From positions 1-56,367 of IMG/VR virus record IMGVR_UViG_3300020204_000079: a stretch of DNA of 56,367 nucleotides, one strand, 5' to 3'. This stretch comes from a virus. Positions 17,901-55,021 of the stretch are shown in pieces. Numbering within the stretch: the first letter of the stretch is position 1; every line of letters begins with the position of its first letter. The notes below the pieces were generated by a model that saw only the letters and a list, made by a program, of their open reading frames with translations, was not told the origin of the DNA and did not search any database. A program made the translations under genes and the position numbers.

Positions 17901-18016
17901 TTCTTAGAAATGGAAACTTAATTTTTGGTCAGGCTGATGACATGACTGTTGACATTAAAAATGCCGCATTTCGTCTTGTTTTTCTTAACACCACATTTGG
18001 TTGGAGGATCGTGTAA
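14993..18016 (+). CDS. Tail fibre/spike with six carbohydrate-binding-like repeats and a beta-helix
   Basis: 1007 residues. Residues ~12-325 hold six tandem ~50-residue modules of the W-x(5-6)-Y-x-x-x-D-x-V-x-Y-G-x-x-x-Y ... W type, resembling ChiC/CBM5-12 carbohydrate-binding domains. Residues ~355-560 begin Y-V-A-P-H-G and look like the pectate-lyase right-handed beta-helix start seen in phage spikes. The C terminus has repeated A-V-K-T-Y-V-D / A-A-K-T-Y-I-D elements common in trimeric fibres. Likely the main glycan-binding receptor protein; no catalytic residues can be named. Confidence 0.82.
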   Translation: MTQLIDLGKLRFHFAGDWSATTQYELNDIVKYGGNVYVYTYALKRIGDLPTDTNYWALMVEGIKFKGAFSTSIAYKVGDGVAHGGKVYIAIKDGTGFTPPNATYWSQFADGIQYEGVYSNTAQYQRNDIVSYGSSGYIALQDTSGNLPTNTTFWAKLIEGISASGAWNPATAYVPNDLVAYGANQYKSVSNNTNQLPIDSAGTLNSAHWILLTESIRNRGAWDTGVEYYINDVVFHGGTSYICVVRHASTDFETNLVTNVYWTKYNSGIRWRGAWAATTVYFRDDVVKDAVGSAYIATSGHTAGANFQTDYTTGKWQQFVVGGTDIYPPILATDTGQSLTVKDDGASFDWIGATQSINVFYVAPHGVDQVHSGKNLSAPFASIKYACSQAPAGSTIFVKTGTYLEQLPIVVPVNVAIVGDNQRTVIVQPATGLSDDGVTPNNESTMFRMSNGSILNKMTFVGMTGWVAGTTTEDITTSTIKGVVVGFNPASPVTTKSPYVLECSAICTGAIGALVDGTIHSTGAKSMIFHGYTVISDNGVGYWVKDGGKAEIVSCFTYYCYFGYASTGGGHIRALNGNNSYGTWGAISRGFDVTESPVTGTLVGRVLPFTYTGGTINVGDTVTSDGGATAIVTNVQYSGDKVYVKDITGTFVTNQTLTFSGGGTGTVKSSVEDQKGFVLVATGFSALPKPGASISLADDTYSYVVQSTTGTWTSSASEITLLLAQEKPTGSAAGTAVVIRYKYSQIRLTGHDFLSIGTGGFTTTNYPGTPTQPAAQGNETDEAFPGRVYYVSTDQDGNFRVGEYFRIDQATGKATLNASAFDLSGLSSLRLGSIGAQLGETINEFSSDATLSGNSNTAVPTEYAVKTYVDNKSGSGSGGLLSTDSTLQTGGSVKAPTVTAAKTYIDDAIASSEKNWSIKTAAYTVVSGDRLALDTTSAAFNVTLPANPGAGDYVEFLDAAGKFDVNKPTILRNGNLIFGQADDMTVDIKNAAFRLVFLNTTFGWRIV

Positions 18017-19589: not shown

Positions 19590-19775
19590 ATGAATCAAAA
19601 AACAAATACCCCAATCCTTGCACCGAAAGACGTGCGATCTGCAAGAAAGTCTGTTTGCGACTCTTGCGAGTTCAAGCACCAGACTGTCCCGGTTTGCACT
19701 CAATGCAAATGCGTAATCATTGCAAAGGTTATGCTTGCATCTGCCGAGTGTCCAAAGGATAAGTGGACCGCATGA
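19590..19775 (+). CDS. Small Cys-rich (zinc-ribbon-like) protein
   Basis: 61 residues with Cys at 23, 26, 36, 39, 41 and 54, spaced as C-x2-C ... C-x2-C-x-C ... C-P-K-D-K-W. Related small proteins with a C-P-x-x-K-W ending are common in environmental phages. Zinc binding is most likely. Because it directly precedes and overlaps (ATGA) the heme oxygenase gene, an iron-binding or electron-transfer role cannot be excluded, but nothing in the sequence requires it. Confidence 0.75.
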   Translation: MNQKTNTPILAPKDVRSARKSVCDSCEFKHQTVPVCTQCKCVIIAKVMLASAECPKDKWTA

Positions 19776-20320
19776 GTTTGCGTGATGCCATTAAAGAGCA
19801 GCATGAGGAGGCTGAGCGCCATCCTCTGACGACTGTTATGATGGCTGGGTCTTTGACGCCGCAAGCTTATGCAGAACTTTTGGCAAACCAATTGATTGTT
19901 TATCAAGCAATTGAAAGCAGAGCTTCGTATTTTGGAATTTCTCAATCCCTGCCTGGGGTCGAGCGATCCGGCTTGATAATGGAAGACCTTATTGAGCTTT
20001 CAGATATGTGTGGCGGTCTTGAATTCTTTGCGTCCAAAGCAACCGCTACTCAACGAGAAAGAATCAATGATCTTGACGTTGATGGCGTAATTGCCAACAT
20101 GTATGTTCACCATATGGCTGACATGTACGGCGGTCAGATTCTGAAAAGCAAGTTGCCCGGGAAGTGTCGGCGTTATGACTTCGACGACAGAAGCGCTCTT
20201 GTTTCTGGTATTAGAGCAATGCTGAAAGATGAGATGGCTTCAGAGGCTAATCTTGCGTTTGAGTTCACCCTTCAGCTTTTTGACGATGTCGCAGACAAGC
20301 ACGGTCTTCTCGCAGCTTGA
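19772..20320 (+). CDS. ho: Heme oxygenase
   Basis: 182 residues from ATG 19772 (4-base overlap with the previous stop, AAGGAT upstream; GTG 19763 is a weaker alternative). Heme oxygenase opens heme to biliverdin, releasing iron and CO with electrons from ferredoxin. Visible family features: proximal-helix His11 in H-E-E-A-E (equivalent to His25 of HO-1), Y-A-E-L-L and Y-Q-A-I-E, and the distal-helix motif A-D-M-Y-G-G-Q (residues 116-122), where Asp117, Gly120 and Gly121 match the Asp140/Gly143/Gly144 water-network and hinge residues. It is shorter than plant or cyanobacterial HO (~240) but includes the core. The next gene, a bilin reductase, overlaps it by 35 bases. Confidence 0.9.
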   Translation: MSLRDAIKEQHEEAERHPLTTVMMAGSLTPQAYAELLANQLIVYQAIESRASYFGISQSLPGVERSGLIMEDLIELSDMCGGLEFFASKATATQRERINDLDVDGVIANMYVHHMADMYGGQILKSKLPGKCRRYDFDDRSALVSGIRAMLKDEMASEANLAFEFTLQLFDDVADKHGLLAA

Positions 20321-20954
20321 AATATTTAAAGATGAGCTTGTAAAAGTTCTTGATACTTACCCGCCTGTAGACGAAGGTCACGATTTCCCGTGGGAAAACC
20401 ACGTTTGGACTTCGCCCACATTTAGGCGCGCACATCTTGACGTTGTTGACGCAAGACACACAAAGCGCCTATACATGTTGCACTTGACTGTTTTTCCGAA
20501 CACGTCTAGCGGTGCGCCCATATTTGGTTTTGACCTAATCGCTGGTCCCAACAAAGTTACTGGCGCTTTCCACGACTTCAGCCCAATCGACCGAAGCCAC
20601 CCTATGGTTGCTTGGTTCGCTTGTCGTGTTTCTGAAATGGCTTGGAGTAAAAGGCGGCAGCTTCCCCCGTGGGCTGAAGAAATTTTTAGCGCCAGTATGG
20701 TAGCTGCTGGAAACATCACTGATGAGTCAGAACTAAGGGCAGTATTAAATCTTGCCTACGATAACCTCCGCTACTATATTAACAATGTAGATGTTGGCAG
20801 CGGCATGTTTATCAAGAAGCAAAATAAATATTGTCAAAATCAAAAGATGAATCCACATACTCCAAAAGTAATGGCTTCGCTCGGCTTTGAAGAGGATTTG
20901 ATCTATGAGTTTATTCAAAAGTGTCTTTTCCCAGAGCTTCCAGAGTCTGGTTGA
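20286..20954 (+). CDS. Ferredoxin-dependent bilin reductase (PcyA/PcyX-like)
   Basis: 222 residues from ATG 20286 inside the heme oxygenase gene (an upstream ATG at 20229 is less likely). The family reduces biliverdin to phycobilins using ferredoxin. Compared from memory with Synechocystis PcyA: P-x-F-R-R-A-H-L-D matches P-Q-F-R-K-M-H-L-E, L-H-L-T-V-F-P matches L-H-C-V-M-F-P, P-I-F-G-F-D-L-I-A-G matches P-L-F-G-C-D-I-V-A-G, L-P-P-W-A-E-E-I-F-S matches L-P-P-W-G-E-I-F-S, and Y-C-Q-N-Q-K with a C-terminal L-F. His66 and Asp83 correspond to PcyA His88 and Asp105. Glu76 is replaced by Asp52 and Asp220 by Pro190. No ferredoxin gene is present, so host ferredoxin is needed. Product (phycoerythrobilin or phycocyanobilin) unknown. 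Confidence 0.92.
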   Translation: MSQTSTVFSQLEIFKDELVKVLDTYPPVDEGHDFPWENHVWTSPTFRRAHLDVVDARHTKRLYMLHLTVFPNTSSGAPIFGFDLIAGPNKVTGAFHDFSPIDRSHPMVAWFACRVSEMAWSKRRQLPPWAEEIFSASMVAAGNITDESELRAVLNLAYDNLRYYINNVDVGSGMFIKKQNKYCQNQKMNPHTPKVMASLGFEEDLIYEFIQKCLFPELPESG

Positions 20955-31800: not shown

Positions 31801-34800
31801 GTGTCTTACTCATTCGTAGACAGCATCACGAATCCTGGCGGTTCTAGCGAGGCTACTGCTAGACGGGCAGAAGCTATTAGGGATCGCATTGAAGACCAAG
31901 ATCGCGCTCGCATGGGCGGATATAACTTTGTCGACAACATCTCTGAAATTCAACAGCCACAGGCATTGCTGCGCGCGTCAGCAATACCAAATGACGTTGA
32001 ACAACCCCAAGAGGTAAAGACTCGCAATCCATTTAAGCAAGTTATCCCCAGGTCGCAAGAGGTTGTCGGCAACTTGGCAGAGGGTTACACCCGAGTGGCT
32101 AAGCCGTTCGGTGTTATTGATCAGACCATCAGTAAGGCATCGCCATTCCTGGGCAGCTTAAACTTGTTGCGCCGCACTATGCAGGGGCAAGAGGGGCTGG
32201 AGCAAGAAAAGCGCGGCTTAGATGAGCTACAAGCTTGGGCGCAAACACAAAAGGACGTAACCAAAGATGTTGGTTATGCCCCAACAAAGCAGCTTGGTGA
32301 CCTCGCAACCAACCCGCTAAATGTTGTACCGTTCGTTGCTGAGCGCGTTATTACCTCACTGCCTGACATGGCGGCTGCGGTCGTTGCGCCAAAGGCATAC
32401 ATTGCGGCACGAACCAATGAACTGCTGAACGAGCGCCTAAAGAACGACAACAAAACGCTGGAACAGGCAACTTTTGCCGATGTGGCGGCTGCTGCTACTG
32501 GCGCTGTCATAGAAACTACGCTGGAGCGGTTTGCCACAAAGAGCTTGCTTAAAGGCGGCGTGGGACAGGGTTCATCAGTTGGTGGGCGCATTGGTAGAGC
32601 AACCGCGCTCCAGTCTGGGACCGAGGGTCTTGAAGAAGGCGCAGCCAATCTTGCGGCAACCCTAGGGACAGAGCGGGGTGTCGACCTCAAAGAGCTTGGC
32701 GCTCAAATGCTTGAGGGCGCTATTGTTGGCGGCGGTCTAGGCGCTACCGTACAAAGCGGTAAAGAGGCTTACGTTAAAGCTACGCCTCAAAAAGACGCCG
32801 ACCGCAGATTCGCTGCTCTTGCGAGCGCGATTGATCAGGATGTCAACCAGACCACATTTGCGCAGTCTGGAATGGATGCCCAGGCGCGAATGGCTCTTGA
32901 CCCCAGTCTGACCCAAGAGCAACGCCGAGAAGTTTCTAATGTGCGTCTTCAAGACCTGGCGGACATTGCTGCTGCGGAGCGGGAAGCAGACGCTTCAGGT
33001 ACTACAACAGCTGTTATTAACAGTCAAACAGGCAATGAACCAGATAAAAATGTTGTGGGTAGCTCACCAGGTGAGCCTATCAACAACTTATCCACGTCCC
33101 CCGCGGCAGTAAACTTATCAACTACTGGGGACGCGGCAACAGATGTGGTTGCCCAGAGCGAGCAGAAATTCCTGGACGACCTGGACTTAGCCAGCCAACA
33201 GCAAAAACAAGCTGTTGAACAGCCCGAAACCCTAGCTGTTGCACTGAACGGTATTGCTGCTGACTTGCAACTTCAACCTAACGAAACGCTGAACGTAACC
33301 GAAGTCACTACCGACAAGCGGTTGAATAAGTTTGCAGAAGCGCTGAGCCAAGCGTTCGGCGTAAACGTACATTGGGTTGATTTTGGCGAACAAGGCATGA
33401 CGACCAGCACTGGTCGCAACCTTGGCGGCTTCAACGGCTATCGCCTGGACAACACGATCCTTGTGTCGCCGAATGCCGACTTTATGGACACGACGTGGCA
33501 TGAGTTAACGCACACGCTTGAAACCAAGTACCCAGAAATCTATGCACGGCTGCGCGACATCATAGTCAGCACTGCTGACCCAGTCGTAAAGCAACGTCTT
33601 TATGACGCACTAAATACCCGTCGCATGCAGGAGGTGGGTCAGCCCATGTCCGCAGCCCAACTTGAGTCTGAGTTGGTCGCTGTGGTTGTTGGACAGCAAT
33701 CAACAGACCCAGCCTTGCTTGGACAGCTGTTTGACAGCTTCCAGGACAAGACCCTGGCTCAGCAGTTCCGCGATGTTCTGACTGAAATCTTAGACCGCTT
33801 GTCCGCGGCGCTGCGTGGTCCTCAGTACATCAAAGACCGCCAGCGTGTTAATCAAGCCAGGGACGCAATCAAGACCGCGTTTGCTGAGTACCAAAAGCGT
33901 GAGGCTGCGAGGGTTGGCGGGACAGCACAAACAGCTGTTGCTACTGGTCAGCAGACGATAGCTGTTGCGACACAGCCCGCAACGCAGACCGTAGCACAGC
34001 CCGCCGCGCCGATTACCCAGACAGCCGCTCCGCCAGTTAAGCCTGAGAAGCAGGGCAAGTTTTCGCGTGAGGAATTGCTTGGTGCGCTGGTCAATGGTGA
34101 TGCGATAAGCGTTACTGATTTGATTGCTCACCCTGACATCTTTGCTGTTTATCAGCAGACCCGCGCTGTACTGCGTCGCGCACCGCCAGTCAAAAAAGTT
34201 TTTGATGACCGTGCGAAAGTCCTTGCTGACCGAGAAGGGATGACTCTTAAAAGCGGTCCAATTAAGAGCTTTGATCGCTCCTTCTCCAAGATTTGGTTCG
34301 ACTACAGCGGCGATCACACCAAGATCGGTGACGTGGTTCGATCAACCCTGGTGGTCAATGACTTGCGTGATTTGCAGGACATGATTAAAGCGACGACCAG
34401 TTTCTTTGATGGCGTAAGCATCAAGCGAAATGGCTGGGACCCAAATGCGCCAGTTCACCCCAGCGGCTACCGCGATGTCTTCTTCAGGGGCGCATCCTTC
34501 CTGAACTTCTCTGTCGAGTTACAGATGAACTTTGCCCCGATGATGGAGGCAAAAGAGATTGCGCATGGTTTCTACAAGATAGAGGATCAACTGCGCCGCG
34601 ACATCCTGAGCCAGGACAAACCCATGTCCCCTGGCGACATCTCAGCGGCTCAAGACCAAATCAGAGAATTGCAGCTTAAACAATTCCAGCTGTATAGCGT
34701 GGCGGCTCAGCGAGTCTTCGACGGGGCGAATGCGCCACGCCAAGCAGCTTCGGTCATAGGTACGCCCTCGGATGTCCAGGTGGACAAGCCGAACGAGCGC

Positions 34801-37800
34801 GGCGCTACCTCGCCGGTGCCCGGGTTGTCGTCCCAAGCCGACAATGTGCCGTCGGGCGCGCGGGTAACTGGTACACCCATAACCTCGAAGAAGGTGGTCC
34901 CTTCCGGGAACGAAGCCGGAATTTCCATATCTTTACCTCCTGTAACAATACCTAATAGTAATATACCACAGCAAGTTGATACTGTGCAAGAGCAGACCGA
35001 CGCTCCCAAAAAGGGTGTTAGTCAGTATTCGCGCTCAACCGTGTTGCTCATGCAGATGTCTGATGCAGATGCTCGACGCGCGATTGGCATGGACGCCAAG
35101 TCTAATAAGGTGCGCGATGTTGGCGCAGCCCTGAACGCCAAGACTCTCAAAGAGGACGGCGAAATTTCTGACAAGAACACCACCGAAGAGGCAATGAAAG
35201 AGATTGCCGACATCCTGGTGGGCGAGATTTCTTATCAACTGGGCACATCCGCAGACACCGGCACGGGCTTAGGCTGGTATTCAGCCAACTACCCCAACGC
35301 AGTTAAGCGATTGGCTCGCGTCTACCCAGAGTTGGACGAAGACGCGGGCGCGCGCAACGTGTTCACCGCCATTGTTGCCATCACCTCTAACGGTGAAAAG
35401 GTCTCGACCAACATCAGCAACGCCCTGAAGATTTACGACGGCTTCCGTGATGGCGGCGCTCTTCAGCCGGTTGGCACTCGCCGTGGCTCGATGAGCGCAA
35501 CCCTTGACCGACTGCAAGCACTGATTGATCAGTTCGGCATGGACGGTTTCAGCGACCATCTGTTGGAAGAGCTTACCGTTGGTCAAATCAACGCAAGCCT
35601 GCGAGCAGCCGGGAAGAAAGCTAACTCTAGCTACACAGCAGACACGGTGATGCCACGAGCCGCACTGTACTTTGGTCCCAAGCTGGGGGCTTTCTATGCC
35701 AACCTCATGGGGTCCGAGGGCTACCTCACTATGGATTTGTGGTGGAGCCGCACATTCAACCGCATTCGTGGGACGCTGATCCCTGAACCTACCAAGTCGA
35801 GTGTTGAGTCTGTTCGACAGCTGTTGGGCTTGCCAGAGAATGTGGACGACGAGGTCGTCGCACTGAGCGCCATCCCGTACCAAGAATCGTACAAGCAGAA
35901 GAAGTACAAGGGCGGTACAGAGCTTGAGAAGAAAGCGAACACACTGGTTAAAACGACGTTCCTTGAACTCAACGAGGCGCCGTTCCGGGCGAGCGACCGT
36001 AGCTTTATGATTGGCACCACGCTGATGGCTCAAGAGAAGCTATCCGATAACGGCGTCAAGCTGACCCTTGCTGACATTCAGGCGGCACTGTGGTACTACG
36101 AGAAACGGCTTTACGCGAAACTGACCGGAAGGAAAACAGATGACATCGGATACGAAGAAGCAATCATCGCCGCAGCAGAGGGTGATCGACCCCAGCGATC
36201 CCCTGCACGATTTAATCGAGGGGGAACTGGCGGGACTGTCGGGACAACAGTCGGTCGAGATGTTGCAACAGATGTTCCCGTCAACCAGCCAGAAGCCAGA
36301 ACCGAACCAACAGAAGTAGAAACTGTTGGACAGTACAGCCGACCGCTGGTGCTTGATGCCATCAACGGCAAGGCAACCGCGCCTGACCTGTTCATCATCA
36401 ACGAGAACCCCCGTGTTCTGACAGCTGTTGGTGCGCCGGAGGAGCCGCTTGTTATTAGCAAGCGCACGGTGATGAAAGTGTCTAATCCAGAGGGCGCTGG
36501 CAAATTCACCGAAGACTTCCGCGGCTACAACTCTGCTGGCTTCCAGGTGCAGCGCGCCAAGCGCATTGCCCTGACTGTTGATGAGTTGCGTTCAGTGCCT
36601 CGAATGATCGGCAATCCTGTTGCAATCATCAAGGTGATGCCTAACGCACAGCTAAACCGCCGTGAGTCGTACAAAGTGGTTCTCGACATGGTGAAAGAAG
36701 GCAACCCTGTTATCGCCATCGTCCAGCCTGGTGTGCCGCAGCGCAGTAAAGAAACTGGCGTCACCATGCGAGCCAGCGAGATCGCCTCGATCTACCCCGT
36801 AAACCAAGAGTCGTCGCTGCGTGAGACCAACAGCGAGATTGCTGCTCAACAGCTGTTGTACTTCAACAAAGGTAAAGCTACCGTCCTGGCAAGCAAAATT
36901 GGAAGCAAGCTTTCTGCACTAACAAGCGGGGCAACTGGTCTGCGCAGCAAGAAGCCCGGTGACTTCCGAAGCCTGGAGTATGACCTCCACCCGAAGAGCA
37001 ACTTCAGCCGCAGCATGGCGGAGGATATAGCGCTTCAGGAAGAGTTCTTGATAGAGCGAGCCAAAGAGTCTGGCTTTGAAAATGTAGACGCCTGGATCGA
37101 CGCTGACTACAACGGGTTTGTTAAGTCTGCTGCTGAGTGGCGCTCGCAAAATCCTGTCAACGAAGGATTCTTCTCTCGCCGCGTCGCATTGCAAGGCAAC
37201 AAGTTCACCCTACCGGCGCGCACGGTTCGTGAGAAGTATCTTGAGAACCTGTTTCAGAACCGCATGTCCAGGGTGGAAGACATCCAACAGGCTGTTCAAC
37301 AGCAGGGTGGAACGCTCGACATCAAGGACAGCGCAGGCAATGTACTTGGCAGCACAGACATTACGGCTGCTTCTCAGCGGATGCGGGGTGCTGTTCGTGG
37401 TCGTTTAGATCGATTCAAGAAAGAGGTCGAGATTCCACTGATTGAGGACGCAGCTAAGGCTGGCGTTGACTTGGATGAAGCCGCTCAGTACCTCTACGCC
37501 ATGTATGCACCAGAGCGCAACCTGATCATTCAGACTAGGAACCCCTCACAGTTCCCAACTGACGGTGGCTCGGGTATGACTAACGCAGAAGCAGCAAAGA
37601 TTGTTGCTGACTTCCGTAAGCGCGCGGACTTCCCCGTGTTCCAAGCGATTGCTAAGCGATTCCAGGACATCACCAATATGACCCAGAGTATCTTGGTGAA
37701 TGAAGGCTTGGTTGACGCAGCGACCGTGAATCAGTGGAAGGCTGAGAATCCAAACTATGTACCTCTGCGAGGCTTTGAGAGCGTGGACGAAGAGACTGGC

Positions 37801-39984
37801 AGCAGTTTGGGTGTCGGCTCTCCTGGTCGATTAGACCCACGCAATCCGTTTGTCCGTATCGCTAAGGGTCGTGAGTCCAGGGCTGGCAACATCGTTGAGA
37901 ACATCCTCAAGGACTACACCGACGCCGTTGTTGTCGCCGAAAAGAACAAGGTCTACCGATTGTTGGGACAGTTTGTCCGCGACAACCCAGACCGCAATCT
38001 CTGGGAAATCAACGCGCCATCAATCAAGCGTTCGTACATTCGCAACCAGCTGCAATCACCGCTCGGTTTTATAAGCGGCGAGGTGCGCATTGCTTTTGAG
38101 ACCAATCAGAACCCGAACGAAACCATCGCCTATCGCGTCAAAGGTCGCCCAGTATTCATTAAGGTTGCAGACCCAGGCATGCTAGATGACCTGAAGATGA
38201 CTGGCGCAATCGGTAGCGGCGATCAGGCGAAGCTGTACTTCAGGGTTTGGGCTGGCGCAATGTCTACACTAGCGAAGGTTCGTACTACTCTGTCCCCTGC
38301 ATTCGTTGCGATTGACGCGGTTAGAAACGCAGAGACCGGCGGGTTCTACAACCTTGTTAAGTACGGTCCATCGCAAGCCATCAAAGCTTATGGAAGACTG
38401 TATCAGGCGGCGCGAGTTGCTTGGAAAGCTGAGCGTGACAACAACTGGACCGGAAGTGCCAACCAGACAGTCACAATCAACCCCCCTGGTCAGCCTTCAC
38501 AAACCTTGACGCTCAAGCAGCTGTACGACATGTATCGTGCAGACGGCGGCAAGGTTGGATACCTGGACATCAAAGAGATCGAAGACATCCAGAAGGATAT
38601 TCAGACTCGATTCAAGGCTGCTCAAGTTGCTGGCTCTTTGAACCCAAAGACATACCTGACCCAAAGCCTGAACGCCCTCAGTAAGGTTGAAGACCTAATG
38701 CTGGATGCGGCTGGCTCAATTGAATCAGCGATGCGCTTTGCAACATACATGACTCGCCTCGAAGCTGGCGCAAACAGAATGGATGCGACCAACGCAGCCA
38801 AGAATGTAACCGTCAACTTTGACGCAAAGGGCAAGTGGACTCCGTACCTGGGGCTAGGGTACATGTTCGCTAACGCCAATATCCAGGGCGCAAAGCAAAC
38901 CACCAGCATCGTCTTTAAGTCTGGCAAGGCTGGCGCAGCCGTGGGCGGTGGGTTAATCGCCCTGGGCTACGGTCTTGCTCAACTTGGTGCGCTGTCGCTG
39001 GGTGATGATGATCAGCCGTATTGGGATAAAGAGGTTTATCGTCAAAGCAAGTTCAAGAGCTTGGTGTTCTTTGATGCGATAGGCAATTCGACAACCGTTC
39101 CGATGGCATACGGTCTGGGCTTTTTTGTAAACATGGGCTACGCACTGAGCGACTTGCAGCGCGGAGTTCCGCTGGCGAAGGTCGGTGCGTTTTTGCGAGA
39201 CAGTTTCTTTACTCACTTCTCGCCGTTTGGTTCAATGGAAAACCTGGCTACGTTCTTCTCACCAACGCTGCTTGATCCGATTGCAGTAGTTGCCATGAAC
39301 AAGACTGAACAGGGCTTACCGTTGATGCCTGACTCAGCCTACGATAAAGGCAAACCCGACAGCGAAAAGTTCTGGACTTCAACTCGCGGCACGATGTTCC
39401 AACAGCTGTCGCAGTACCTGAACGAAGCCACCGGCGGAACTCAGGGCATGAGCGGAGCCGTTGATGTCAGCCCAGAAACCATGCGTTATTGGGTTGGCTG
39501 GTTCACCGGCGGTGTGGGTGGCGCAATCCGAGATGCGGCGGAAAGCATTTATTTAACATCAGAGATTGGCGCTGATGCTGCTTTCGAGAAGAACAAGGTG
39601 CCGATCCTCAAGGCGTTCTACCAATCCAACACCGGCAAGGCTGATCAGATCGAGTTCTATCGGAACGCTGAGAAGGCGGAGCGCGCGATCAATGAATGGA
39701 AGCTCTTGTACGGTACAGAGCAAGCGAAGAAGCCAGAGGTTGCTGACCGACTTCGTGAAGAGCGCAAGCTACAGGCACTTGGCGCTGCTGTTGATGACTA
39801 CAAGAAAGCTTTGTCTGGTTTGCGCAGACAAGAAGTTGATGTAATTGACAAGCGCACCTCTGGTCGATACGACGCAGCTGAAGCCGAAGCCAAGCTAAAG
39901 AACATCGCCGAGGACAAGGCAAGACTGTACAAGCGCTTTAACAAAGCCTTTTACAAAGCTGACCCCAACACACCCGGCAACTAA
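31801..39984 (+). CDS. Large polyvalent protein (multi-domain, probably injected)
   Basis: 2727 residues from GTG 31801, the largest gene (about 15% of the genome). Order: Ala-rich helical region (~1-500); metallopeptidase-like H-E-L-T-H at 567-571; RelA/SpoT-like nucleotidyltransferase region (~793-936) with Asp844, Arg847, G-Y-R at 889-891 and V-E-L-Q at 905-908; disordered linker (~980-1070); a long helical domain (~1080-1460) resembling DUF7178 of phage polyvalent proteins; a MuF_C-like domain (~1515-1670) with N-P-R-V-L-T-A-V-G-A; a helical part; and an LPD38-like C-terminal domain (~2240-2450). F/Y-S-R tripeptides occur at 754, 1076, 1512 and 1735 near domain boundaries. Such proteins are thought to travel in the virion and act on the new host early. 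Confidence 0.88.
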   Translation: MSYSFVDSITNPGGSSEATARRAEAIRDRIEDQDRARMGGYNFVDNISEIQQPQALLRASAIPNDVEQPQEVKTRNPFKQVIPRSQEVVGNLAEGYTRVAKPFGVIDQTISKASPFLGSLNLLRRTMQGQEGLEQEKRGLDELQAWAQTQKDVTKDVGYAPTKQLGDLATNPLNVVPFVAERVITSLPDMAAAVVAPKAYIAARTNELLNERLKNDNKTLEQATFADVAAAATGAVIETTLERFATKSLLKGGVGQGSSVGGRIGRATALQSGTEGLEEGAANLAATLGTERGVDLKELGAQMLEGAIVGGGLGATVQSGKEAYVKATPQKDADRRFAALASAIDQDVNQTTFAQSGMDAQARMALDPSLTQEQRREVSNVRLQDLADIAAAEREADASGTTTAVINSQTGNEPDKNVVGSSPGEPINNLSTSPAAVNLSTTGDAATDVVAQSEQKFLDDLDLASQQQKQAVEQPETLAVALNGIAADLQLQPNETLNVTEVTTDKRLNKFAEALSQAFGVNVHWVDFGEQGMTTSTGRNLGGFNGYRLDNTILVSPNADFMDTTWHELTHTLETKYPEIYARLRDIIVSTADPVVKQRLYDALNTRRMQEVGQPMSAAQLESELVAVVVGQQSTDPALLGQLFDSFQDKTLAQQFRDVLTEILDRLSAALRGPQYIKDRQRVNQARDAIKTAFAEYQKREAARVGGTAQTAVATGQQTIAVATQPATQTVAQPAAPITQTAAPPVKPEKQGKFSREELLGALVNGDAISVTDLIAHPDIFAVYQQTRAVLRRAPPVKKVFDDRAKVLADREGMTLKSGPIKSFDRSFSKIWFDYSGDHTKIGDVVRSTLVVNDLRDLQDMIKATTSFFDGVSIKRNGWDPNAPVHPSGYRDVFFRGASFLNFSVELQMNFAPMMEAKEIAHGFYKIEDQLRRDILSQDKPMSPGDISAAQDQIRELQLKQFQLYSVAAQRVFDGANAPRQAASVIGTPSDVQVDKPNERGATSPVPGLSSQADNVPSGARVTGTPITSKKVVPSGNEAGISISLPPVTIPNSNIPQQVDTVQEQTDAPKKGVSQYSRSTVLLMQMSDADARRAIGMDAKSNKVRDVGAALNAKTLKEDGEISDKNTTEEAMKEIADILVGEISYQLGTSADTGTGLGWYSANYPNAVKRLARVYPELDEDAGARNVFTAIVAITSNGEKVSTNISNALKIYDGFRDGGALQPVGTRRGSMSATLDRLQALIDQFGMDGFSDHLLEELTVGQINASLRAAGKKANSSYTADTVMPRAALYFGPKLGAFYANLMGSEGYLTMDLWWSRTFNRIRGTLIPEPTKSSVESVRQLLGLPENVDDEVVALSAIPYQESYKQKKYKGGTELEKKANTLVKTTFLELNEAPFRASDRSFMIGTTLMAQEKLSDNGVKLTLADIQAALWYYEKRLYAKLTGRKTDDIGYEEAIIAAAEGDRPQRSPARFNRGGTGGTVGTTVGRDVATDVPVNQPEARTEPTEVETVGQYSRPLVLDAINGKATAPDLFIINENPRVLTAVGAPEEPLVISKRTVMKVSNPEGAGKFTEDFRGYNSAGFQVQRAKRIALTVDELRSVPRMIGNPVAIIKVMPNAQLNRRESYKVVLDMVKEGNPVIAIVQPGVPQRSKETGVTMRASEIASIYPVNQESSLRETNSEIAAQQLLYFNKGKATVLASKIGSKLSALTSGATGLRSKKPGDFRSLEYDLHPKSNFSRSMAEDIALQEEFLIERAKESGFENVDAWIDADYNGFVKSAAEWRSQNPVNEGFFSRRVALQGNKFTLPARTVREKYLENLFQNRMSRVEDIQQAVQQQGGTLDIKDSAGNVLGSTDITAASQRMRGAVRGRLDRFKKEVEIPLIEDAAKAGVDLDEAAQYLYAMYAPERNLIIQTRNPSQFPTDGGSGMTNAEAAKIVADFRKRADFPVFQAIAKRFQDITNMTQSILVNEGLVDAATVNQWKAENPNYVPLRGFESVDEETGSSLGVGSPGRLDPRNPFVRIAKGRESRAGNIVENILKDYTDAVVVAEKNKVYRLLGQFVRDNPDRNLWEINAPSIKRSYIRNQLQSPLGFISGEVRIAFETNQNPNETIAYRVKGRPVFIKVADPGMLDDLKMTGAIGSGDQAKLYFRVWAGAMSTLAKVRTTLSPAFVAIDAVRNAETGGFYNLVKYGPSQAIKAYGRLYQAARVAWKAERDNNWTGSANQTVTINPPGQPSQTLTLKQLYDMYRADGGKVGYLDIKEIEDIQKDIQTRFKAAQVAGSLNPKTYLTQSLNALSKVEDLMLDAAGSIESAMRFATYMTRLEAGANRMDATNAAKNVTVNFDAKGKWTPYLGLGYMFANANIQGAKQTTSIVFKSGKAGAAVGGGLIALGYGLAQLGALSLGDDDQPYWDKEVYRQSKFKSLVFFDAIGNSTTVPMAYGLGFFVNMGYALSDLQRGVPLAKVGAFLRDSFFTHFSPFGSMENLATFFSPTLLDPIAVVAMNKTEQGLPLMPDSAYDKGKPDSEKFWTSTRGTMFQQLSQYLNEATGGTQGMSGAVDVSPETMRYWVGWFTGGVGGAIRDAAESIYLTSEIGADAAFEKNKVPILKAFYQSNTGKADQIEFYRNAEKAERAINEWKLLYGTEQAKKPEVADRLREERKLQALGAAVDDYKKALSGLRRQEVDVIDKRTSGRYDAAEAEAKLKNIAEDKARLYKRFNKAFYKADPNTPGN

Positions 39985-40143: not shown

Positions 40144-41169
40144 TTACTGTGGGTTAGAAGCGCCCACGTTCCCCACATTTTGCGCACAGCCACCCACAGC
40201 TGTTGGCATGCTGTTGTTGGCGTACTGTCTGGAGCCTTCAGCCGACAGGTGAGCGTACCTGTTGACCATCTCCAGGGTTTGCCAACCGCCCAGCGCCTTG
40301 AGTGTGAGCAGCGGTGTGCCGTTCATGGCGTGATAGCTGGCGAAGGTGTGACGGAGGTCGTGCCACCTGAAGTTAGAGATGCCAGCCCTGCCCAGTGCTT
40401 TCTTCCAGGCTGCTGTGTTTGTGTTCTGTACTGGGTAGCCGCAGTATGTGAACACATGTGTAGCGCTTTGGTTTCTTTCACCTTCAAGAATCTGGATCGC
40501 TCTATCCCCTAGAGGGATGCCGTGATTTCGACCCGACTTGTACTCAGTCGATTCAATCCACAGCAAACGACGCTGCATGTCAACCCGGTCCCACCGAAGT
40601 CCAGTCACATTGGACATCCGAAGACCTGTCAATACGCTGAACTCAGCCATCACCCGCAAGTGGTGCGGCAGTTCACGCATCAACCTGGACAGTTCATCCT
40701 CAGATAGAAACCGCAGACGCGCTTTGGGCGCGGGGTAGGTCTTCATCTTGACGGGCGACACATCCATCCATCCCCATTCGACCGACTTATTAAAGAGCGC
40801 CTTCACGAACTTTAGGTAGTGGTTTGCATTTGAGTCCGTAGTCTCAATACGCTTTTGCTCCACTGCCTTGCGAACATCGCCATCAGTGATCGTCGAGAAC
40901 ACTCGACCAGACCAGTGCTGATCAAGCCATCGCGCAATCGATACGTCACGGTCCAGCGACCGCTTGTCTGTGCGCTCAGCAAACCACCGCTTAGTGGCGT
41001 CGTCCCAAGTTAGAGGTTTGGCTTGACCCCTTGTGATTTCAGCCAAACGTCTGTCGTGGTACGCCTTTGCTGTTAACTGGTTACCAGACCCAGTTGATTC
41101 ACGATGTCTGGTGCCATCTGGACCGCGCACTTCAATCCAGTAAATGCTGCCGCGCTTGTAAATACTCAT
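40144..41169 (-). CDS. int: Tyrosine-recombinase integrase
   Basis: 341 residues, start ATG at 41169. A short N-terminal arm-binding-like segment, a SAM-like core-binding domain (about 53-145) and the catalytic domain with Arg184 (T-G-L-R), Lys211, His270 and Arg273 (H-D-L-R-H), Trp296 in place of the second His (G-G-W) and nucleophile Tyr305 (R-Y-A-H-L). All key residues are present, so it should be active. It catalyses integration at tRNA-Asp via the adjacent attP. No excisionase was recognised. Confidence 0.96.
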   Translation of the reverse strand: MSIYKRGSIYWIEVRGPDGTRHRESTGSGNQLTAKAYHDRRLAEITRGQAKPLTWDDATKRWFAERTDKRSLDRDVSIARWLDQHWSGRVFSTITDGDVRKAVEQKRIETTDSNANHYLKFVKALFNKSVEWGWMDVSPVKMKTYPAPKARLRFLSEDELSRLMRELPHHLRVMAEFSVLTGLRMSNVTGLRWDRVDMQRRLLWIESTEYKSGRNHGIPLGDRAIQILEGERNQSATHVFTYCGYPVQNTNTAAWKKALGRAGISNFRWHDLRHTFASYHAMNGTPLLTLKALGGWQTLEMVNRYAHLSAEGSRQYANNSMPTAVGGCAQNVGNVGASNPQ

Positions 41170-44463: not shown

Positions 44464-45114
44464 TTAGACCACCTGAGACCTTGCGTAGCAGAAGACCTTG
44501 CCCACTACCGCAGGAACAACTGAGAACAGCTGTTGCTCTGGCAGTACAACAGGCTCAAACATTCGGTCGTCCTTGCTCAGGCGGATGTTGGAGCCAATCC
44601 TCTGCACCCTGCGCACCTCGGTTCTTTCGCTGAAGCGCATGATGTAAAGACCGTCGCCCTCAATAGACTTGATGCCCAGGTCAATGTAGAGACAGTCCTC
44701 TGGAACGATGGTCGGCTGCATCCCAGCATCTTCAAACACCGAGGCTACGATGTTCTTAGTGGCTGTCACCCGGCTGAACCTTGGGTATGCTGTTGGCAGC
44801 ACCATAAAGTAGTCGTAACGCTCTGGTGCAACGTCAGGAATTTGGCTGTAGTCCACAATGGGAATGGTCAGCACACGCTTGACCCCGACGCCGCGGGGCG
44901 TGTCGAGCCAGCCCCTGCTAATACCAAGCCGCTGCTCGATGTCCCGTGCCAGCTTCTCGCCGAAGCCCCGCCTGTAGTCTTCGTTCTCTGTCAGCACCAG
45001 GTTGATAAGGTTTGGGTTCTTGCCAGTAGCACGGCAGAATGCCGCGCGGTTGCCCTTGTAATGGTCTTTGATGTAGGTAACTAGGTTAATTCGTCTCGAC
45101 TGCTGTAAGTCCAC
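44464..45114 (-). CDS. CI-like repressor with degenerate S24 domain
   Basis: 216 residues from GTG 45114, AGGGAG upstream. N-terminal helix-turn-helix (about 10-70; G-N-R-A-A-F-C-R-A-T-G, N-P-N-L-I-N). C-terminal S24-like fold (about 100-210) with E-D-A-G-M-Q-P-T-I-V-P-E-D and D-G-L-Y-I-M. Where active repressors have S-M-x-P-T, this has Gly131-Met; the Lys of V-K-R is Arg168. Both dyad residues are therefore missing, so RecA-stimulated self-cleavage is not expected. Probably maintains lysogeny by binding the CAATACC-type operators. Confidence 0.85.
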   Translation of the reverse strand: MDLQQSRRINLVTYIKDHYKGNRAAFCRATGKNPNLINLVLTENEDYRRGFGEKLARDIEQRLGISRGWLDTPRGVGVKRVLTIPIVDYSQIPDVAPERYDYFMVLPTAYPRFSRVTATKNIVASVFEDAGMQPTIVPEDCLYIDLGIKSIEGDGLYIMRFSERTEVRRVQRIGSNIRLSKDDRMFEPVVLPEQQLFSVVPAVVGKVFCYARSQVV

Positions 45115-49930: not shown

Positions 49931-50539
49931 TTACTGTTTGACAGAACTAGTGTATGCATAGTGTGCAACTAGAGGGTTGGCAGCATACAGGTCAAACAGC
50001 TTCTCAAGCATCCACAACCCTTGCCAGTGGCAGTTGTGGCGATCCACAGTGAGCGCGGTACGCTGTTCAACCAGCCTCTGGTAGTACCGCTTCTGCCTTT
50101 CGGCAGACCACGTTGTGGCATTCGGAAGGTCGCGCATGTTGACGACGATGTCAGCCAGCTTTATCAACCTGGAGTGAATATCCAGCTTTGGCAAAGCTTC
50201 AAGCATAAGCTCCCTGCGGTTGGGCGCATTCGGGAACGTCACCTTCTTGACCTGAGCCGCGATCTCCGGACAGGTCAGGTCGGCAATCTCGGATAACGTC
50301 AACGACGTGTCCTCGACTGTGTCGTGCAGCCAAGCGGCTGCAACTGTTTCAAATCTGCCGCCGCAAGTTGTGACTAACTGCGCGACCGCTCGCGGGTGTT
50401 CGATGTACGGCGTTTTGCCGTCGCCTCTCGTCGTCCCAGAGTGTGCCGCGGTGGCTAACTCGATTGCCCGTGGAATGTAGCAATTTTCGTAGATTTCGAT
50501 TTTTTGGGGACTGGGATTCACACTTGGTGGACGGATCAT
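49931..50539 (-). CDS. SpoT/MESH1-like HD hydrolase
   Basis: 202 residues, ATG 50539 with GGAGCAACAGC upstream. A-A-H-S-G (His33), Y-I-E-H-P (His48), H-D-T-V-E-D-T (72-78) and I-K-L-A-D-I-V-V-N-M-R follow the HD pattern of (p)ppGpp hydrolases, with all metal ligands present. No synthetase, TGS or ACT domain, so it is a small alarmone hydrolase type. It would lower host (p)ppGpp (or related nucleotides). It terminates the leftward island. Confidence 0.87.
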   Translation of the reverse strand: MIRPPSVNPSPQKIEIYENCYIPRAIELATAAHSGTTRGDGKTPYIEHPRAVAQLVTTCGGRFETVAAAWLHDTVEDTSLTLSEIADLTCPEIAAQVKKVTFPNAPNRRELMLEALPKLDIHSRLIKLADIVVNMRDLPNATTWSAERQKRYYQRLVEQRTALTVDRHNCHWQGLWMLEKLFDLYAANPLVAHYAYTSSVKQ

Positions 50540-51719: not shown

Positions 51720-53789
51720 TTACATGACACGGCGCGTGTCGCGCTGTTCCAGCTGTTTGATTACTGTTTTCAGCGAAGACTTGTGCATGTCGTCCAGCGT
51801 GACCGGGCAACCGACTGCGTAGGCTTGCGAGAATTGCCAAGCGTTGGTGTATATGCCAAAGCCGACGACATCGACGCCGTACAACTTGTAGGCAGCGCTG
51901 GTAAGCTGCTGCATAGAGTTGATTTCGCCGAACCCGTCCGTAATGACCACTACTACCTTGCGCTGGTGGGGCATGGCGGACAGCTGTTCGCAGGCTGTTT
52001 TGACGCCCTGGTAGTCCGGTGTTCCGTAGTTCGGCAGCCGCTTCATAAGGTCGAAGTGGTGCGGAACATTGGCGCATTTGTCAGCAAAGCGCTTAGCAAC
52101 TACCAGGGTGCAGTTGCCGCTGTCCATCATGGTGGAATGGTAGACGCCAGCCAAGTCAGTGTTTGTACCGCCACCCATGCCGTACCGTGCGTTTTGGAAG
52201 CCGACAACTTCAACGTCAGCACCCGACGCCTCGCAAGCTGTTGCAACAGCCCAGCCAAGATCAACAGCGCTGTTGATGGACGAACCTTTCATCGAGGCAG
52301 ACAGGTCGATGACAACCGAGACCGCAGTATCGATGCCATCGGCAAACCACCGGCGCTTGAACACTTGCTCGGAGCCAGCCAACATGCGGGGCGCGCGCTT
52401 GCCGTCGAAGCGACCGCCCATCGCGCCACCGTCCCAGCCGCAGCGCTCCGGAGCGTTAAGAATCCGGAACAGCTGAGCCTTGAGGGCGGGGAGCGAGGAG
52501 CCGTTTAGCTTTTTAAGCTTGTTGCGCACGGTGCGCTCGGTTACATCCTGCAACTGCGACCACTTGCGCATGTCACTGCGCATTGCGGGAGCGATGGCGG
52601 GAAGGTTGATGGCACCCTTGGTGCGCTGGGCAATACCCTGGAAGACATCGTCCACGTTTGGCTCGGGGGCAATGACCGCCTCCTCGCTAAAGGTGTCCGA
52701 CTCAGGGGCGATGAACGGGTCGCCGACCTCGGTGCCGCCGGTTTCATCAGCACCATCGTCGGCGTCACCGGCGCTGTCGAAGAGCGTGTCGCCCGACTCG
52801 GGTGCAGCCTCGGCGTTGGCAGAAGCTTCCTCAGACAGTGCGTCAGCCTCAGCCTGGGCAGCAGCTTTGGCAGCAGCGTCGGGGTCGTCATCACCGAAGT
52901 TGTCATTGGCATCGTCCTCCGCGAAACGCGAGGGGGGATTCCAATGCCCGCTAGGTCCATCGGTGTCGGTGTCAGCATCAGCATCAGCATCAGCACCAGC
53001 ACCGAATAAGTCGTCGTCGGCAGCGTCCTGCGGCTCGGCGTCGTCGCCTTGCTGCTGGGGCATTGACTGCGGACCCTGAAGCTTGGTGAACGTATCGGGG
53101 AACTGCTGTTTCCAGCTGTCCACAAACTGTTCGGCGATCACCAGGGCACCAGCGCTGCCCTTGCGATCAAGCGGCAGGAGCTTGACTGCGTCGGCTGCTG
53201 CTGCATACAGCGCGCGGTGCGGTTCAGGGATGCGCCCCAGAAGCTGCTTAGCAAAACCGTTACCGTCACCCATTGCAGCGCGGCAAACCAGCGCCAGAGC
53301 GAAGGGTGCCGAGTTGATGCTGCAAGGGTTGAATTCGCCGTCAGCAATGATTTTGCTGGTGAACTTGCTCATCAACTTTTTGAACATCGAACGGGCACCG
53401 CGAGCCTTGCCGCTGGTAATGACCGCATGCTCGATCCGGGCGTCCTCGATGCCGTTCCAGCAGTGGTGAATCAGCGCACCCTTGTGGCGCGTCACGCCAG
53501 ACTGGGTGTAGGCGACGTGCCCGAGTTCATGCAGCGTATAGGCGCTGATGAAGTCCGCCTCCTGGCGGTTGATCATGGCGTTGTCAGGCAGCGCTGGGTA
53601 GTTGATCCGGAAGGAATTGACCCAGTCGGTGTCGGTGTTGTTCACGCTCCACGATGCAAACGCCACGTCACCCTCGAAAGTGGCGACGCCGGTGCCGACC
53701 TTGAAGCGAAAGCCAAGGTTTGCCAACTGCTTGTTGGCGTGGGAGAGGGCGGCAGCTTTGACGCGCGCCCCTTGTATGCGGTTTGTCAT
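51720..53789 (-). CDS. CobT-like metalloprotein with VWA domain
   Basis: 689 residues. N-terminal metallopeptidase-like region with H-E-L-G-H at 87-91 and N-G-I-E-D-A-R-I-E soon after (third ligand), then an acidic, Asp/Ala-rich linker (about 260-390), then a VWA domain (from about 485) with MIDAS D-L-S-A-S. This order matches CobT, the VWA subunit of cobaltochelatase, and MoxR-partner proteins. The AAA+ partner is encoded 11 bases upstream in the same operon. The chelatase catalytic subunit CobN is absent, so metal insertion into a tetrapyrrole is unlikely without a host CobN; a chaperone or remodelling role is more general. Confidence 0.85.
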   Translation of the reverse strand: MTNRIQGARVKAAALSHANKQLANLGFRFKVGTGVATFEGDVAFASWSVNNTDTDWVNSFRINYPALPDNAMINRQEADFISAYTLHELGHVAYTQSGVTRHKGALIHHCWNGIEDARIEHAVITSGKARGARSMFKKLMSKFTSKIIADGEFNPCSINSAPFALALVCRAAMGDGNGFAKQLLGRIPEPHRALYAAAADAVKLLPLDRKGSAGALVIAEQFVDSWKQQFPDTFTKLQGPQSMPQQQGDDAEPQDAADDDLFGAGADADADADTDTDGPSGHWNPPSRFAEDDANDNFGDDDPDAAAKAAAQAEADALSEEASANAEAAPESGDTLFDSAGDADDGADETGGTEVGDPFIAPESDTFSEEAVIAPEPNVDDVFQGIAQRTKGAINLPAIAPAMRSDMRKWSQLQDVTERTVRNKLKKLNGSSLPALKAQLFRILNAPERCGWDGGAMGGRFDGKRAPRMLAGSEQVFKRRWFADGIDTAVSVVIDLSASMKGSSINSAVDLGWAVATACEASGADVEVVGFQNARYGMGGGTNTDLAGVYHSTMMDSGNCTLVVAKRFADKCANVPHHFDLMKRLPNYGTPDYQGVKTACEQLSAMPHQRKVVVVITDGFGEINSMQQLTSAAYKLYGVDVVGFGIYTNAWQFSQAYAVGCPVTLDDMHKSSLKTVIKQLEQRDTRRVM

Positions 53790-53800
53790 GCGTTGTCCTT

Positions 53801-55021
53801 TCAGGCAGCAACTTCCATTTCACTGTCGCTGGTCGTAATTGCCAGCACGGGGTCGAAACTCACTAGTGCAGTGCCCAGTGCAGCGCGCAGCGCGTCGTCG
53901 GAGACGTTGGCTTTCCAAAGCTGTTGAAGAACCTCGGCTGACTCGGGAGACGCACGGTTGACCATTGTTTCCTCGAAGGCACCCCGGAAGTCCTGACCAT
54001 CAGTCAGCGCCTCGGCGAGGTAGAACGCCTCGCGCAGCGTTGGGATATGGTCAAGCTGGGCAGAATCACCGGCTTGGCGGCAGACGGTCAGGAAGGCGAC
54101 GATTACCTCAGCGAGCGGCAGCTTGACGCCAGCGCGCATCGAGATGACCTTGGCTTCCATTTCAGGCTTGAGGTAGCTGAAGTTCAGCGTTTTAGCGAAG
54201 CGGTTGACGAAGGCGACGTTTTGCTCACGCACCCCGACGTACATGCCGGTGAAATCACCGCGACCGTTAGAGTTGTCAGCAGCCATGAACACGACGCCGG
54301 GAGCCTTGCGGATCACCTGTCCGGTTTCGGGAATGGTGACCACGCCTTCAGGTTCCAGCGGAGCGTGGAGCGCCGACAAGTACTCAGGACGGGCAAAGCT
54401 GACCTCATCGAGCAGGATGATTGCACCCGGGCGCTGCATGCCGCGTAGGATGACGCCTTGCTGGTAGACCGTGCTGCCGTTTTTGACGCGCTCACCGCCA
54501 ATGAATTCGTAACGCTCAGCACCGGAGTCGAAGCTGACCCGGATAAAGGCGCGACCAAGACCGGCGGCGACGTTTTTGACAAACTCGGTTTTGCCGGTGC
54601 CAGCGGGACCAGCCAGCCAGACGTTGCGTCCGCGCTTAATGGCAACGACAGCGGAAAACAGCAGTTCGGCGTCGAACTTGTACATCGGGTCAAGTATCGG
54701 GGCGGCGGGGTCGTTCCAGACCTCGACCTCGGTGCCAGCGTATTTGCCGCGGATGCCAAACACCTGACCCAGGGTGGCGGTTTTGACAACAGCAACGTCA
54801 GGCTGTTCGACCGGCTGTTCAACAGCAGCGGGGGCAGCAGCGCCCCAGACGCCAGCGATCAGACCGACCTGGGGAAGCGCAGCAGCCACAACCTCACCGG
54901 GCAGCGCAGAGACAGCGGCGACCATTTCCTCCTTGGAGGCACGGGCGAGATCGCGTCCTTTGCCGGTTACCCGGCGCAGCACGTCATTGAGTTGGGGTTT
55001 GGAGAGTATGTCAAGGTTCAT
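53801..55021 (-). CDS. MoxR/CobS-like AAA+ ATPase
   Basis: 406 residues from ATG 55021 behind AAAGGTAACC. Walker A G-P-A-G-T-G-K-T at 138-145, Walker B I-I-L-L-D-E (Asp205-Glu206) and the sensor region with A-D-N-S-N-G-R-G-D. The N-terminal ~80 residues are an Ala-rich helical extension with an SAP/HeH-like start (L-S-K-P-Q-L-N-D-V-L-R-R-V-T-G-K). CobS-type proteins with CobT-type partners occur in several phages. Function here unknown. Confidence 0.88.
   Translation of the reverse strand: MNLDILSKPQLNDVLRRVTGKGRDLARASKEEMVAAVSALPGEVVAAALPQVGLIAGVWGAAAPAAVEQPVEQPDVAVVKTATLGQVFGIRGKYAGTEVEVWNDPAAPILDPMYKFDAELLFSAVVAIKRGRNVWLAGPAGTGKTEFVKNVAAGLGRAFIRVSFDSGAERYEFIGGERVKNGSTVYQQGVILRGMQRPGAIILLDEVSFARPEYLSALHAPLEPEGVVTIPETGQVIRKAPGVVFMAADNSNGRGDFTGMYVGVREQNVAFVNRFAKTLNFSYLKPEMEAKVISMRAGVKLPLAEVIVAFLTVCRQAGDSAQLDHIPTLREAFYLAEALTDGQDFRGAFEETMVNRASPESAEVLQQLWKANVSDDALRAALGTALVSFDPVLAITTSDSEMEVAA

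What the first reader, a model, noticed from the sequence alone, without database searches (positions are those of the whole stretch)
34180..34620. RelA/SpoT-like domain inside the injected-type polyvalent protein
Residues ~793-936 show I-G-D-V-V-R, P-S-G-Y-R-D and S-V-E-L-Q-M with conserved spacing, as in (p)ppGpp-synthetase-type nucleotidyltransferases. If active it could make alarmone or toxic (p)ppApp or tRNA-modifying products in the new host at DNA entry. Known: toxSAS enzymes of this fold occur in phage- and prophage-borne systems.
Basis: partly seen in the sequence, partly recalled or inferred. Interest (0 to 1): 0.76.

Follow-up and report, generated by a model that had tools for sequence, protein, structure and literature searches.

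The report
Phage-injected alarmone-synthetase toxin with antidote
A temperate phage carries, inside a giant protein that it probably injects with its DNA, an intact-looking enzyme related to a bacterial toxin that burns up ATP by making (p)ppApp, and elsewhere in the same genome it carries the kind of enzyme that breaks this molecule down again.

Summary
Residues 755-979 (core 820-925) of the 2727-aa ORF 31801-39984 form a complete RelA/SpoT-type synthetase domain. Its nearest solved relative is Tas1/Apk1, the (p)ppApp-synthetase toxin of Pseudomonas (phmmer 1.8e-7; family profile 1.6e-29; AlphaFold pLDDT 87, top Foldseek hit Tas1). Pfam RelA_SpoT misses it. All residues invariant among 19 relatives are kept. 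The carrier is a DarB/LPD38-type polyvalent protein; a relative (JC1 gp69) is a proven virion protein.

New here: the phage also encodes a Mesh1-like small alarmone hydrolase (49931-50539, minus strand), 10 kb beyond the gene. In relatives it sits at one syntenic site, present in 4 of 5 records with the synthetase domain and 0 of 6 without it (few independent lineages). In ten distinct other phage loci, where the domain lies in a smaller gene, the hydrolase follows directly. In a close relative the slot behind the metallopeptidase holds a zeta-toxin domain instead.

RelA/SpoT domains in polyvalent proteins and MuF-Apk2/Aph1 pairs are already described, so this is a new variant of a known kind. 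Activity, ejection and antidote function are inferred.

The parts
31801..39984 (+). 2727-aa polyvalent (DarB/LPD38-type) protein that carries the domain
   Evidence: ORF; LPD38 1.4e-20 and MuF_C 7.4e-10; C-terminal 927 aa homologous to DarB-like proteins of Bcep22/933W-type podophages, e.g. JC1 28% over 99%, E=2e-65
34063..34737 (+). Tas1/Apk-like (toxSAS) alarmone-synthetase domain, residues 755-979; catalytic core residues 820-925 at 34258-34575
33499..33513 (+). HELTH zinc-metallopeptidase motif (residues 567-571), just upstream of the toxin slot
   Evidence: conserved in all 8 polyvalent proteins compared
35233..35754 (+). DUF7178-like segment, residues about 1145-1318 (below the Pfam cut-off)
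   Evidence: E=5e-4, 20.4 bits against cut-off 27
36565..36882 (+). MuF_C domain (PF18819), residues 1589-1694
   Evidence: E=7.4e-10
39052..39600 (+). LPD38 domain, residues 2418-2600
   Evidence: E=1.4e-20
49931..50539 (-). 202-aa small alarmone hydrolase (Mesh1/Aph1-like HD_4), candidate antidote
   Evidence: HD_4 1e-13; human MESH1 1.3e-15 with HD motifs kept; syntenic and co-occurring with the synthetase domain
51720..55021 (-). CobT-like VWA gene (51720-53789) and CobS/MoxR-like AAA gene (53801-55021) that mark the hydrolase site in relatives
40144..41169 (-). tyrosine integrase, next to the polyvalent gene: phage is probably temperate
   Evidence: Phage_integrase 3.2e-27
44464..45114 (-). 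S24-type repressor-like gene
   Evidence: Peptidase_S24 2.3e-6

Best explanation
The segment is a catalytically competent-looking adenosine 3'-pyrophosphokinase (toxSAS) domain of the Tas1/Apk kind, carried as exchangeable cargo in a toxin slot behind the metallopeptidase of a virion-borne, ejected polyvalent protein. Inferred mechanism: the protein is packaged in the head and enters the recipient cell with the DNA; the domain, perhaps released by the metallopeptidase, transfers pyrophosphate from ATP to ATP/ADP, making (p)ppApp and draining ATP in that cell. The phage's own small alarmone hydrolase (49931-50539) hydrolyses (p)ppApp back to ATP/ADP and so protects the producing cell, the lysogen, or the newly infected cell once the phage genome is expressed. 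Supported by sequence and predicted structure: fold, intact active site, Tas1 affinity, hydrolase identity, syntenic co-occurrence. Inferred: ejection of this protein, ATP as acceptor, toxicity, antidote role, timing.
For: Tas1 is the only PDB hit of the single sequence (1.8e-7) and the best hit of the family profile (1.6e-29; other RSH synthetases only 1e-6 or weaker). AlphaFold pLDDT 87 / pTM 0.79; best Foldseek hit Tas1, the 43 PDB hits at E<=0.001 are alarmone or tRNA pyrophosphokinases. Invariant K822 R826 K830 Y835 G837 D838 D844 R847 G889 Y890 E906 Q908 K918 H922 Y925. syn2 is R-S-T and syn4 is ELQ-MN, i.e. not the GTP-type AVR / IR (signatures from PMC12226406). Purifying selection on the domain: dN 0.014 / dS 0.21 between G007 and G027. 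DarB-like JC1 gp69, homologous over the C-terminal 927 aa, is a virion protein by mass spectrometry (PMC9144972). Hydrolase: MESH1-like; directly downstream of the domain gene in 10 distinct phage loci; at one syntenic site in hydrolase-positive relatives, missing there in G012 (173-bp gap) and G009; 4 of 5 domain-positive against 0 of 6 domain-negative records that contain the site. Mesh1/Aph1/PaSAH-type hydrolases are known to relieve Apk toxicity (PMC12226406, PMC12691689, PMC8118318).
Against: syn3 (GYRDVF) matches neither the published adenosine (GxN) nor guanosine (SxH) signature. One domain-positive record (G039) has no HD_4 hydrolase. Small hydrolases also occur in phages without this domain (158 of 50,697 records match the window hydrolase). 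Independent lineages in the co-occurrence test are few (about 3 of 4 against 0 of 2). No Tis1/IapK-type binding immunity was identified. Nothing shows that this particular protein is in the virion or is injected.
Confidence: 0.62

Rival explanations
1. The domain is a tRNA CCA-end pyrophosphokinase (FaRel2/CapRel-like) that stops translation in the recipient cell, rather than a (p)ppApp synthetase.
For: Same fold and superfamily; CapRel structures are among the Foldseek hits (7ztb, E=5e-5). From general knowledge (not looked up here), small alarmone hydrolases can also reverse tRNA pyrophosphorylation, so the antidote does not discriminate.
Against: No FaRel2 or CapRel chain is reached by sequence, even with the profile, while Tas1 is at 1.6e-29. 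FaRel2 has D90, G93 and R95 where this family and Tas1 have D..R.T.
Confidence: 0.14
2. The domain makes (p)ppGpp and imposes or mimics the stringent response at DNA entry.
For: It belongs to the RelA/SpoT superfamily; exported relatives that make (p)ppGpp exist (PMC12691689).
Against: syn4 lacks the arginine of the GTP-type motif and syn2 is of the adenosine type; [quoted passage not shown]
Confidence: 0.1
3. The hydrolase is unrelated to the domain: it is a counter-defence enzyme against host alarmones or host toxSAS abortive systems, and the co-occurrence is chance or shared ancestry.
For: Such hydrolases occur in many phages in which no synthetase of this family was found; G039 has the domain without it; the gene lies 10 kb beyond the polyvalent gene on the other strand.
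Against: Directly downstream of the domain gene in 10 distinct other phage loci; the named phage with the highest bit score for the window hydrolase (PHB04, 80 bits) is also the only named phage hit for the domain; absent at the same site from relatives without the domain.
Confidence: 0.25
4. The domain is a degenerate relic kept only as a structural or spacing element.
For: Polyvalent proteins are long mosaics; no activity is shown.
Against: Active-site residues kept in window, G007, G014, G027 and G039, with one conservative R-to-K change in G001; dN/dS about 0.07 between G007 and G027.
Confidence: 0.07

Closest known systems
Tas1 / Apk1 (Pseudomonas aeruginosa T6SS (p)ppApp synthetase, PDB 6OX6)
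   Same: Closest solved relative by sequence and by fold; same PIKS-xxR-xxxK, DY.GD, D..R.T, GY and E-x-Q motifs
   Different: Tas1 is the C-terminal domain of a PAAR protein delivered by T6SS, with immunity by binding (Tis1); here the domain lies in the middle of a phage polyvalent protein
Apk2 + Aph1 (+ IapK): MuF polymorphic toxins of temperate phages (PMC12226406)
   Same: Phage virion-linked adenosine 3'-pyrophosphokinase together with a phage-encoded alarmone hydrolase
   Different: Apk2 has an N-terminal MuF domain, a C-terminal toxin and adjacent immunity genes; here there is no N-terminal MuF, the domain is internal, the hydrolase lies about 10 kb beyond the gene on the other strand, and no IapK was found
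RelA/SpoT domains in polyvalent proteins (Iyer et al. 2017, PMC5512222)
   Same: Same idea: a RelA/SpoT NTase as one module of an ejected multidomain protein that may also hold metallopeptidase, MuF-C and LPD38 modules
   Different: Described there for spirochaete and epsilonproteobacterial (pro)phages and MuF fusions, from sequence only; in the passages read no Tas1 affinity, hydrolase partner or slot exchange is described. Whether its Fig. 5C includes this architecture was not checked (figures not held)
DarB-like antirestriction proteins of Bcep22/933W-type podophages
   Same: C-terminal ~927 aa homologous; same genomic place at the end of the virion module
   Different: Upstream part differs: here metallopeptidase plus toxSAS
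Small alarmone hydrolases (MESH1, PaSAH, Aph1)
   Same: HD motifs and length of the 202-aa gene
   Different: Substrate unknown here; in the PDB nearest to MESH1, farther from the solved (p)ppApp hydrolase 7SMG

Membership tests
RelA/SpoT synthetase superfamily (RSH SYNTH domain) | SYNTH fold | tested here: met
   AlphaFold pLDDT 87; Foldseek hits at E<=0.001 are alarmone or tRNA pyrophosphokinases
RelA/SpoT synthetase superfamily (RSH SYNTH domain) | ATP-donor and Mg residues (K/R/K cluster, catalytic D, E-x-Q) | tested here: met
   K822, R826, K830, D844, E906, Q908 present and invariant among 19 sequences
RelA/SpoT synthetase superfamily (RSH SYNTH domain) | Match over the Pfam PF04607 cut-off (a detection rule, not a biological criterion) | tested here: not met
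   No hit of the window domain; relatives L001 and L016 pass the cut-off
Adenosine 3'-pyrophosphokinase (Apk/Tas1 type) | Sequence nearer to Tas1 than to (p)ppGpp synthetases | tested here: met
   1.6e-29 against 1e-6 or weaker
Adenosine 3'-pyrophosphokinase (Apk/Tas1 type) | Published syn2/syn3/syn4 signatures of ATP-type enzymes | tested here: inconclusive
   syn2 R-S-T fits; syn4 M-N is not the GTP-type I-R; syn3 D-x-F fits neither type
Adenosine 3'-pyrophosphokinase (Apk/Tas1 type) | Makes (p)ppApp from ATP | not testable with these tools
   needs an in vitro assay
Apk2 (MuF polymorphic toxin) | N-terminal MuF domain with C-terminal toxin | tested here: not met
   No N-terminal MuF in Pfam scans; domain internal; MuF_C lies downstream
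Apk2 (MuF polymorphic toxin) | Adjacent iapK and aph1 immunity genes | tested here: not met
   Gene is followed by the integrase on the other strand; hydrolase lies about 10 kb further on
Apk1 (T6SS) | PAAR domain | tested here: not met
   No PAAR hit
Phage polyvalent protein | Several distinct conflict-type domains in one long protein, with LPD domains | tested here: met
   HELTH metallopeptidase motif, toxSAS domain, MuF_C, LPD38
Phage polyvalent protein | Packaged in the virion and ejected | not tested
   Only by homology: JC1 gp69 found in virions (PMC9144972)
Small alarmone hydrolase (49931-50539) | HD_4 domain with HP, HDxxED and KxADxxxNxRD motifs | tested here: met

The most novel reading that the evidence does not exclude
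A delayed-antidote system: the phage injects an ATP-draining (p)ppApp synthetase with its DNA, and only cells in which the phage genome survives and expresses its own hydrolase recover their ATP. The pair is genetically unlinked (late virion gene, hydrolase gene on the other strand) yet gained and lost together, and the virion slot can be refilled with other toxins such as zeta.
Probability: 0.25. Interest if true: 0.8.

Novelty: new variant of a known kind. Interest (0 to 1): 0.56.

Why it matters
Why temperate phages load growth-arresting enzymes into virions is an open question. Here the toxin would enter before any phage gene is expressed, and the reversing enzyme is a separate phage gene at a fixed site, so the two roles can be tested separately by simple gene removals. 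The swap of toxSAS for zeta toxin at the same place in a close relative points to a general toxin slot behind the metallopeptidase.

Tried and rejected
Single-sequence scan of viral contigs with the domain found nothing; the three-member alignment A1 was needed. Pfam and PADLOC on the window domain: no hit. The 175-aa antisense ORF 33790-34317 was taken as chance (no support). The broad count of 41 records of 30 kb or more (4 of 5 against 0 of 36) was discarded as unfair, because most of these lack the CobS-hydrolase neighbourhood; only the 11 records with the site are used. G003 was excluded because its fragment does not reach the site. An alternative antidote for G039 or for the zeta domain of G009 was looked for by eye in the syntenic gap; nothing recognisable. 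No search for a Tis1/IapK-like binding immunity was made: no usable profile at hand.

Full report
Observation. The ORF 31801-39984 (+) encodes 2727 aa from a GTG start. A single-sequence phmmer search of residues 700-1000 against all PDB chains returns one hit at E<=10: Tas1 (6OX6, E=1.8e-7). A profile from 18 relatives without the window finds the segment at 77.4 bits (E=1.4e-23); the best of 200 shuffled copies reaches 2.3 bits. Pfam RelA_SpoT gives no hit on it, so ordinary annotation would miss it.

Fold and active site. With 19 sequences (alignment A2) AlphaFold gives pLDDT 87, pTM 0.79. Foldseek against the PDB ranks Tas1 first (E=1.6e-7) and the hits at E<=0.001 are alarmone or tRNA pyrophosphokinases. 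Against predicted viral proteins the best hits are phage proteins labelled DdrB-like, RelA/SpoT, ART-PolyVal-like and Tas1, so such domains already sit, some of them unnamed, in databases. Invariant residues are K822, R826, K830, Y835, G837, D838, D844, R847, G889, Y890, E906, Q908, K918, H922, Y925. By analogy with FaRel2 (PMC11782079) the lysine/arginine cluster binds the donor triphosphate, D844 is the Mg ligand, and E906/Q908 hold the donor adenine (inference).

Acceptor. The paper on Apk2 toxins gives syn2 RYT, syn3 GxN and syn4 YH for the ATP-type enzyme, against AVR, SxH and IR for GTP-type enzymes (PMC12226406). The window has RST, DVF and MN. So syn2 fits the ATP type, syn4 is not the GTP type, and syn3 fits neither. 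With Tas1 as the nearest relative (profile 1.6e-29 against 1e-6 and weaker for (p)ppGpp synthetases) (p)ppApp is the likeliest product, but specificity cannot be read safely from motifs: that same paper failed to convert specificity by swapping them.

The carrier protein. It has a HELTH metallopeptidase motif at residue 567, MuF_C at 1589-1694 and LPD38 at 2418-2600. Its last 927 aa match DarB-like and related proteins of Bcep22-, 933W- and Vibrio-type phages over nearly their whole length (125 records). JC1 gp69, one of them, was found in purified virions with 51 unique peptides (PMC9144972). Gene order (terminase, SU10-type portal, capsid, adaptors, tail, polyvalent protein, integrase) fits a temperate podophage. 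Hence packaging is likely and ejection plausible, both by homology only. The metallopeptidase could release the domain, as Iyer et al. suggest for polyvalent proteins (PMC5512222).

A toxin slot. Related phages carry the same domain in the same place behind the metallopeptidase in at least four further versions (G007/G027/G031, G014, G001, G039); identity to the window domain is 63%, 36% and 38% for the first three. In G009, whose protein is 61% identical in the last ~1200 aa and keeps the metallopeptidase, the domain is missing and a zeta-toxin domain (E=1.7e-12) stands there. Between the close pair G007 and G027 the domain has dN 0.014 and dS 0.21: it is kept under purifying selection.

The hydrolase. 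The window also encodes a 202-aa HD_4 protein at 49931-50539 (-), nearest in the PDB to human MESH1 (1.3e-15), with the HP, HDTVED and KLAD..N.RD motifs kept. Three observations tie it to the domain. (a) In other phages the domain sits in a smaller protein, next to the portal in Bordetella phage PHB04; in 10 distinct loci a hydrolase of the same kind is encoded directly downstream. (b) PHB04, the only named phage hit for the window domain, is also the named phage with the highest bit score for the window hydrolase (80 bits). (c) Among relatives of the window phage that contain both the polyvalent C-terminus and the CobS gene beside the hydrolase site, the hydrolase is present in 4 of 5 with the domain (window, G007, G014, G027; not G039) and in 0 of 6 without it (G009, G012, G032, G034, G035, G044) (one-sided Fisher 5/330 = 0.015, computed by hand). 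In G007, G014, G006, G027 and G002 it lies at the same place after the CobT-like gene; in G012 that place is a 173-bp gap and in G009 it holds other small ORFs. Limits: several records are near-duplicates, so independent lineages are about 3 of 4 against 0 of 2; for G032, G034, G035 and G044 the domain's absence rests on the profile search alone and their polyvalent genes may be cut; G039 is an exception; and small hydrolases exist in 158 of 50,697 phage records anyway.

Mechanism. Best reading: the protein is ejected with the DNA; its toxSAS domain converts ATP/ADP to (p)ppApp in the recipient; the phage's hydrolase turns (p)ppApp back to ATP/ADP and protects whichever cell expresses it. That Aph1/Mesh1/PaSAH-type enzymes relieve Apk toxicity is established for other pairs (PMC12226406, PMC12691689, PMC8118318). 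What the phage gains, such as blocking ATP-dependent defence at entry, excluding rivals, or killing competitors of the lysogen, cannot be decided from sequence.

Known or new. RelA/SpoT modules in polyvalent proteins were reported in 2017 (PMC5512222) and MuF-Apk2/Aph1 pairs were characterised in prophages (PMC12226406). The window is not an Apk1 (no PAAR) or an Apk2 (no N-terminal MuF, no adjacent immunity). It works like them, if active. New here are the Tas1 affinity of a polyvalent module, its probable antidote at a distant fixed site, and the toxin slot. I rate it a new variant of a known kind.

Noticed in passing
window 19763-20954 (+): Overlapping heme oxygenase (3.7e-13) and ferredoxin-dependent bilin reductase (6.6e-20) genes inserted in the tail module; nearest named phage is Pelagibacter phage Mosig (42%), cyanophage PcyA only 25-29%. 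No match in the relatives compared.
   Followed up: partly
L213 4173-5939 (G009 polyvalent protein, residues 796-1384): Zeta-toxin domain (1.7e-12) in the slot where the window has the alarmone synthetase.
   Followed up: partly
L007 5459-8164: 902-aa phage protein with the same synthetase domain fused to an inorganic pyrophosphatase (InPase 2.1e-42).
   Followed up: no
L001 11074-13339 (Bordetella phage PHB04): The gene after the portal carries the synthetase domain, followed about 0.2 kb downstream by an HD hydrolase annotated as (p)ppGpp synthetase/hydrolase: an Apk2/Aph1-like pair in a named cultured phage.
   Followed up: partly
window 51720-55021 (-): CobT-like VWA and CobS/MoxR-like AAA genes, conserved in the relatives that reach this locus; function in the phage unknown.
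   Followed up: no
window 14993-18016 (+): 1007-aa tail-region protein with a CBM_5_12 carbohydrate-binding module (1.4e-14).
   Followed up: no
L002 7854-8573, L025, L026, L027 (Azospirillum): Small stand-alone Tas1-like proteins (239 aa in L002) without a delivery domain; no hydrolase found within the fetched flanks.
   Followed up: partly
L024 7272-8885 (Fulvivirga kasyanovii): 538-aa frame with a divergent version of the domain; context not examined.
   Followed up: no
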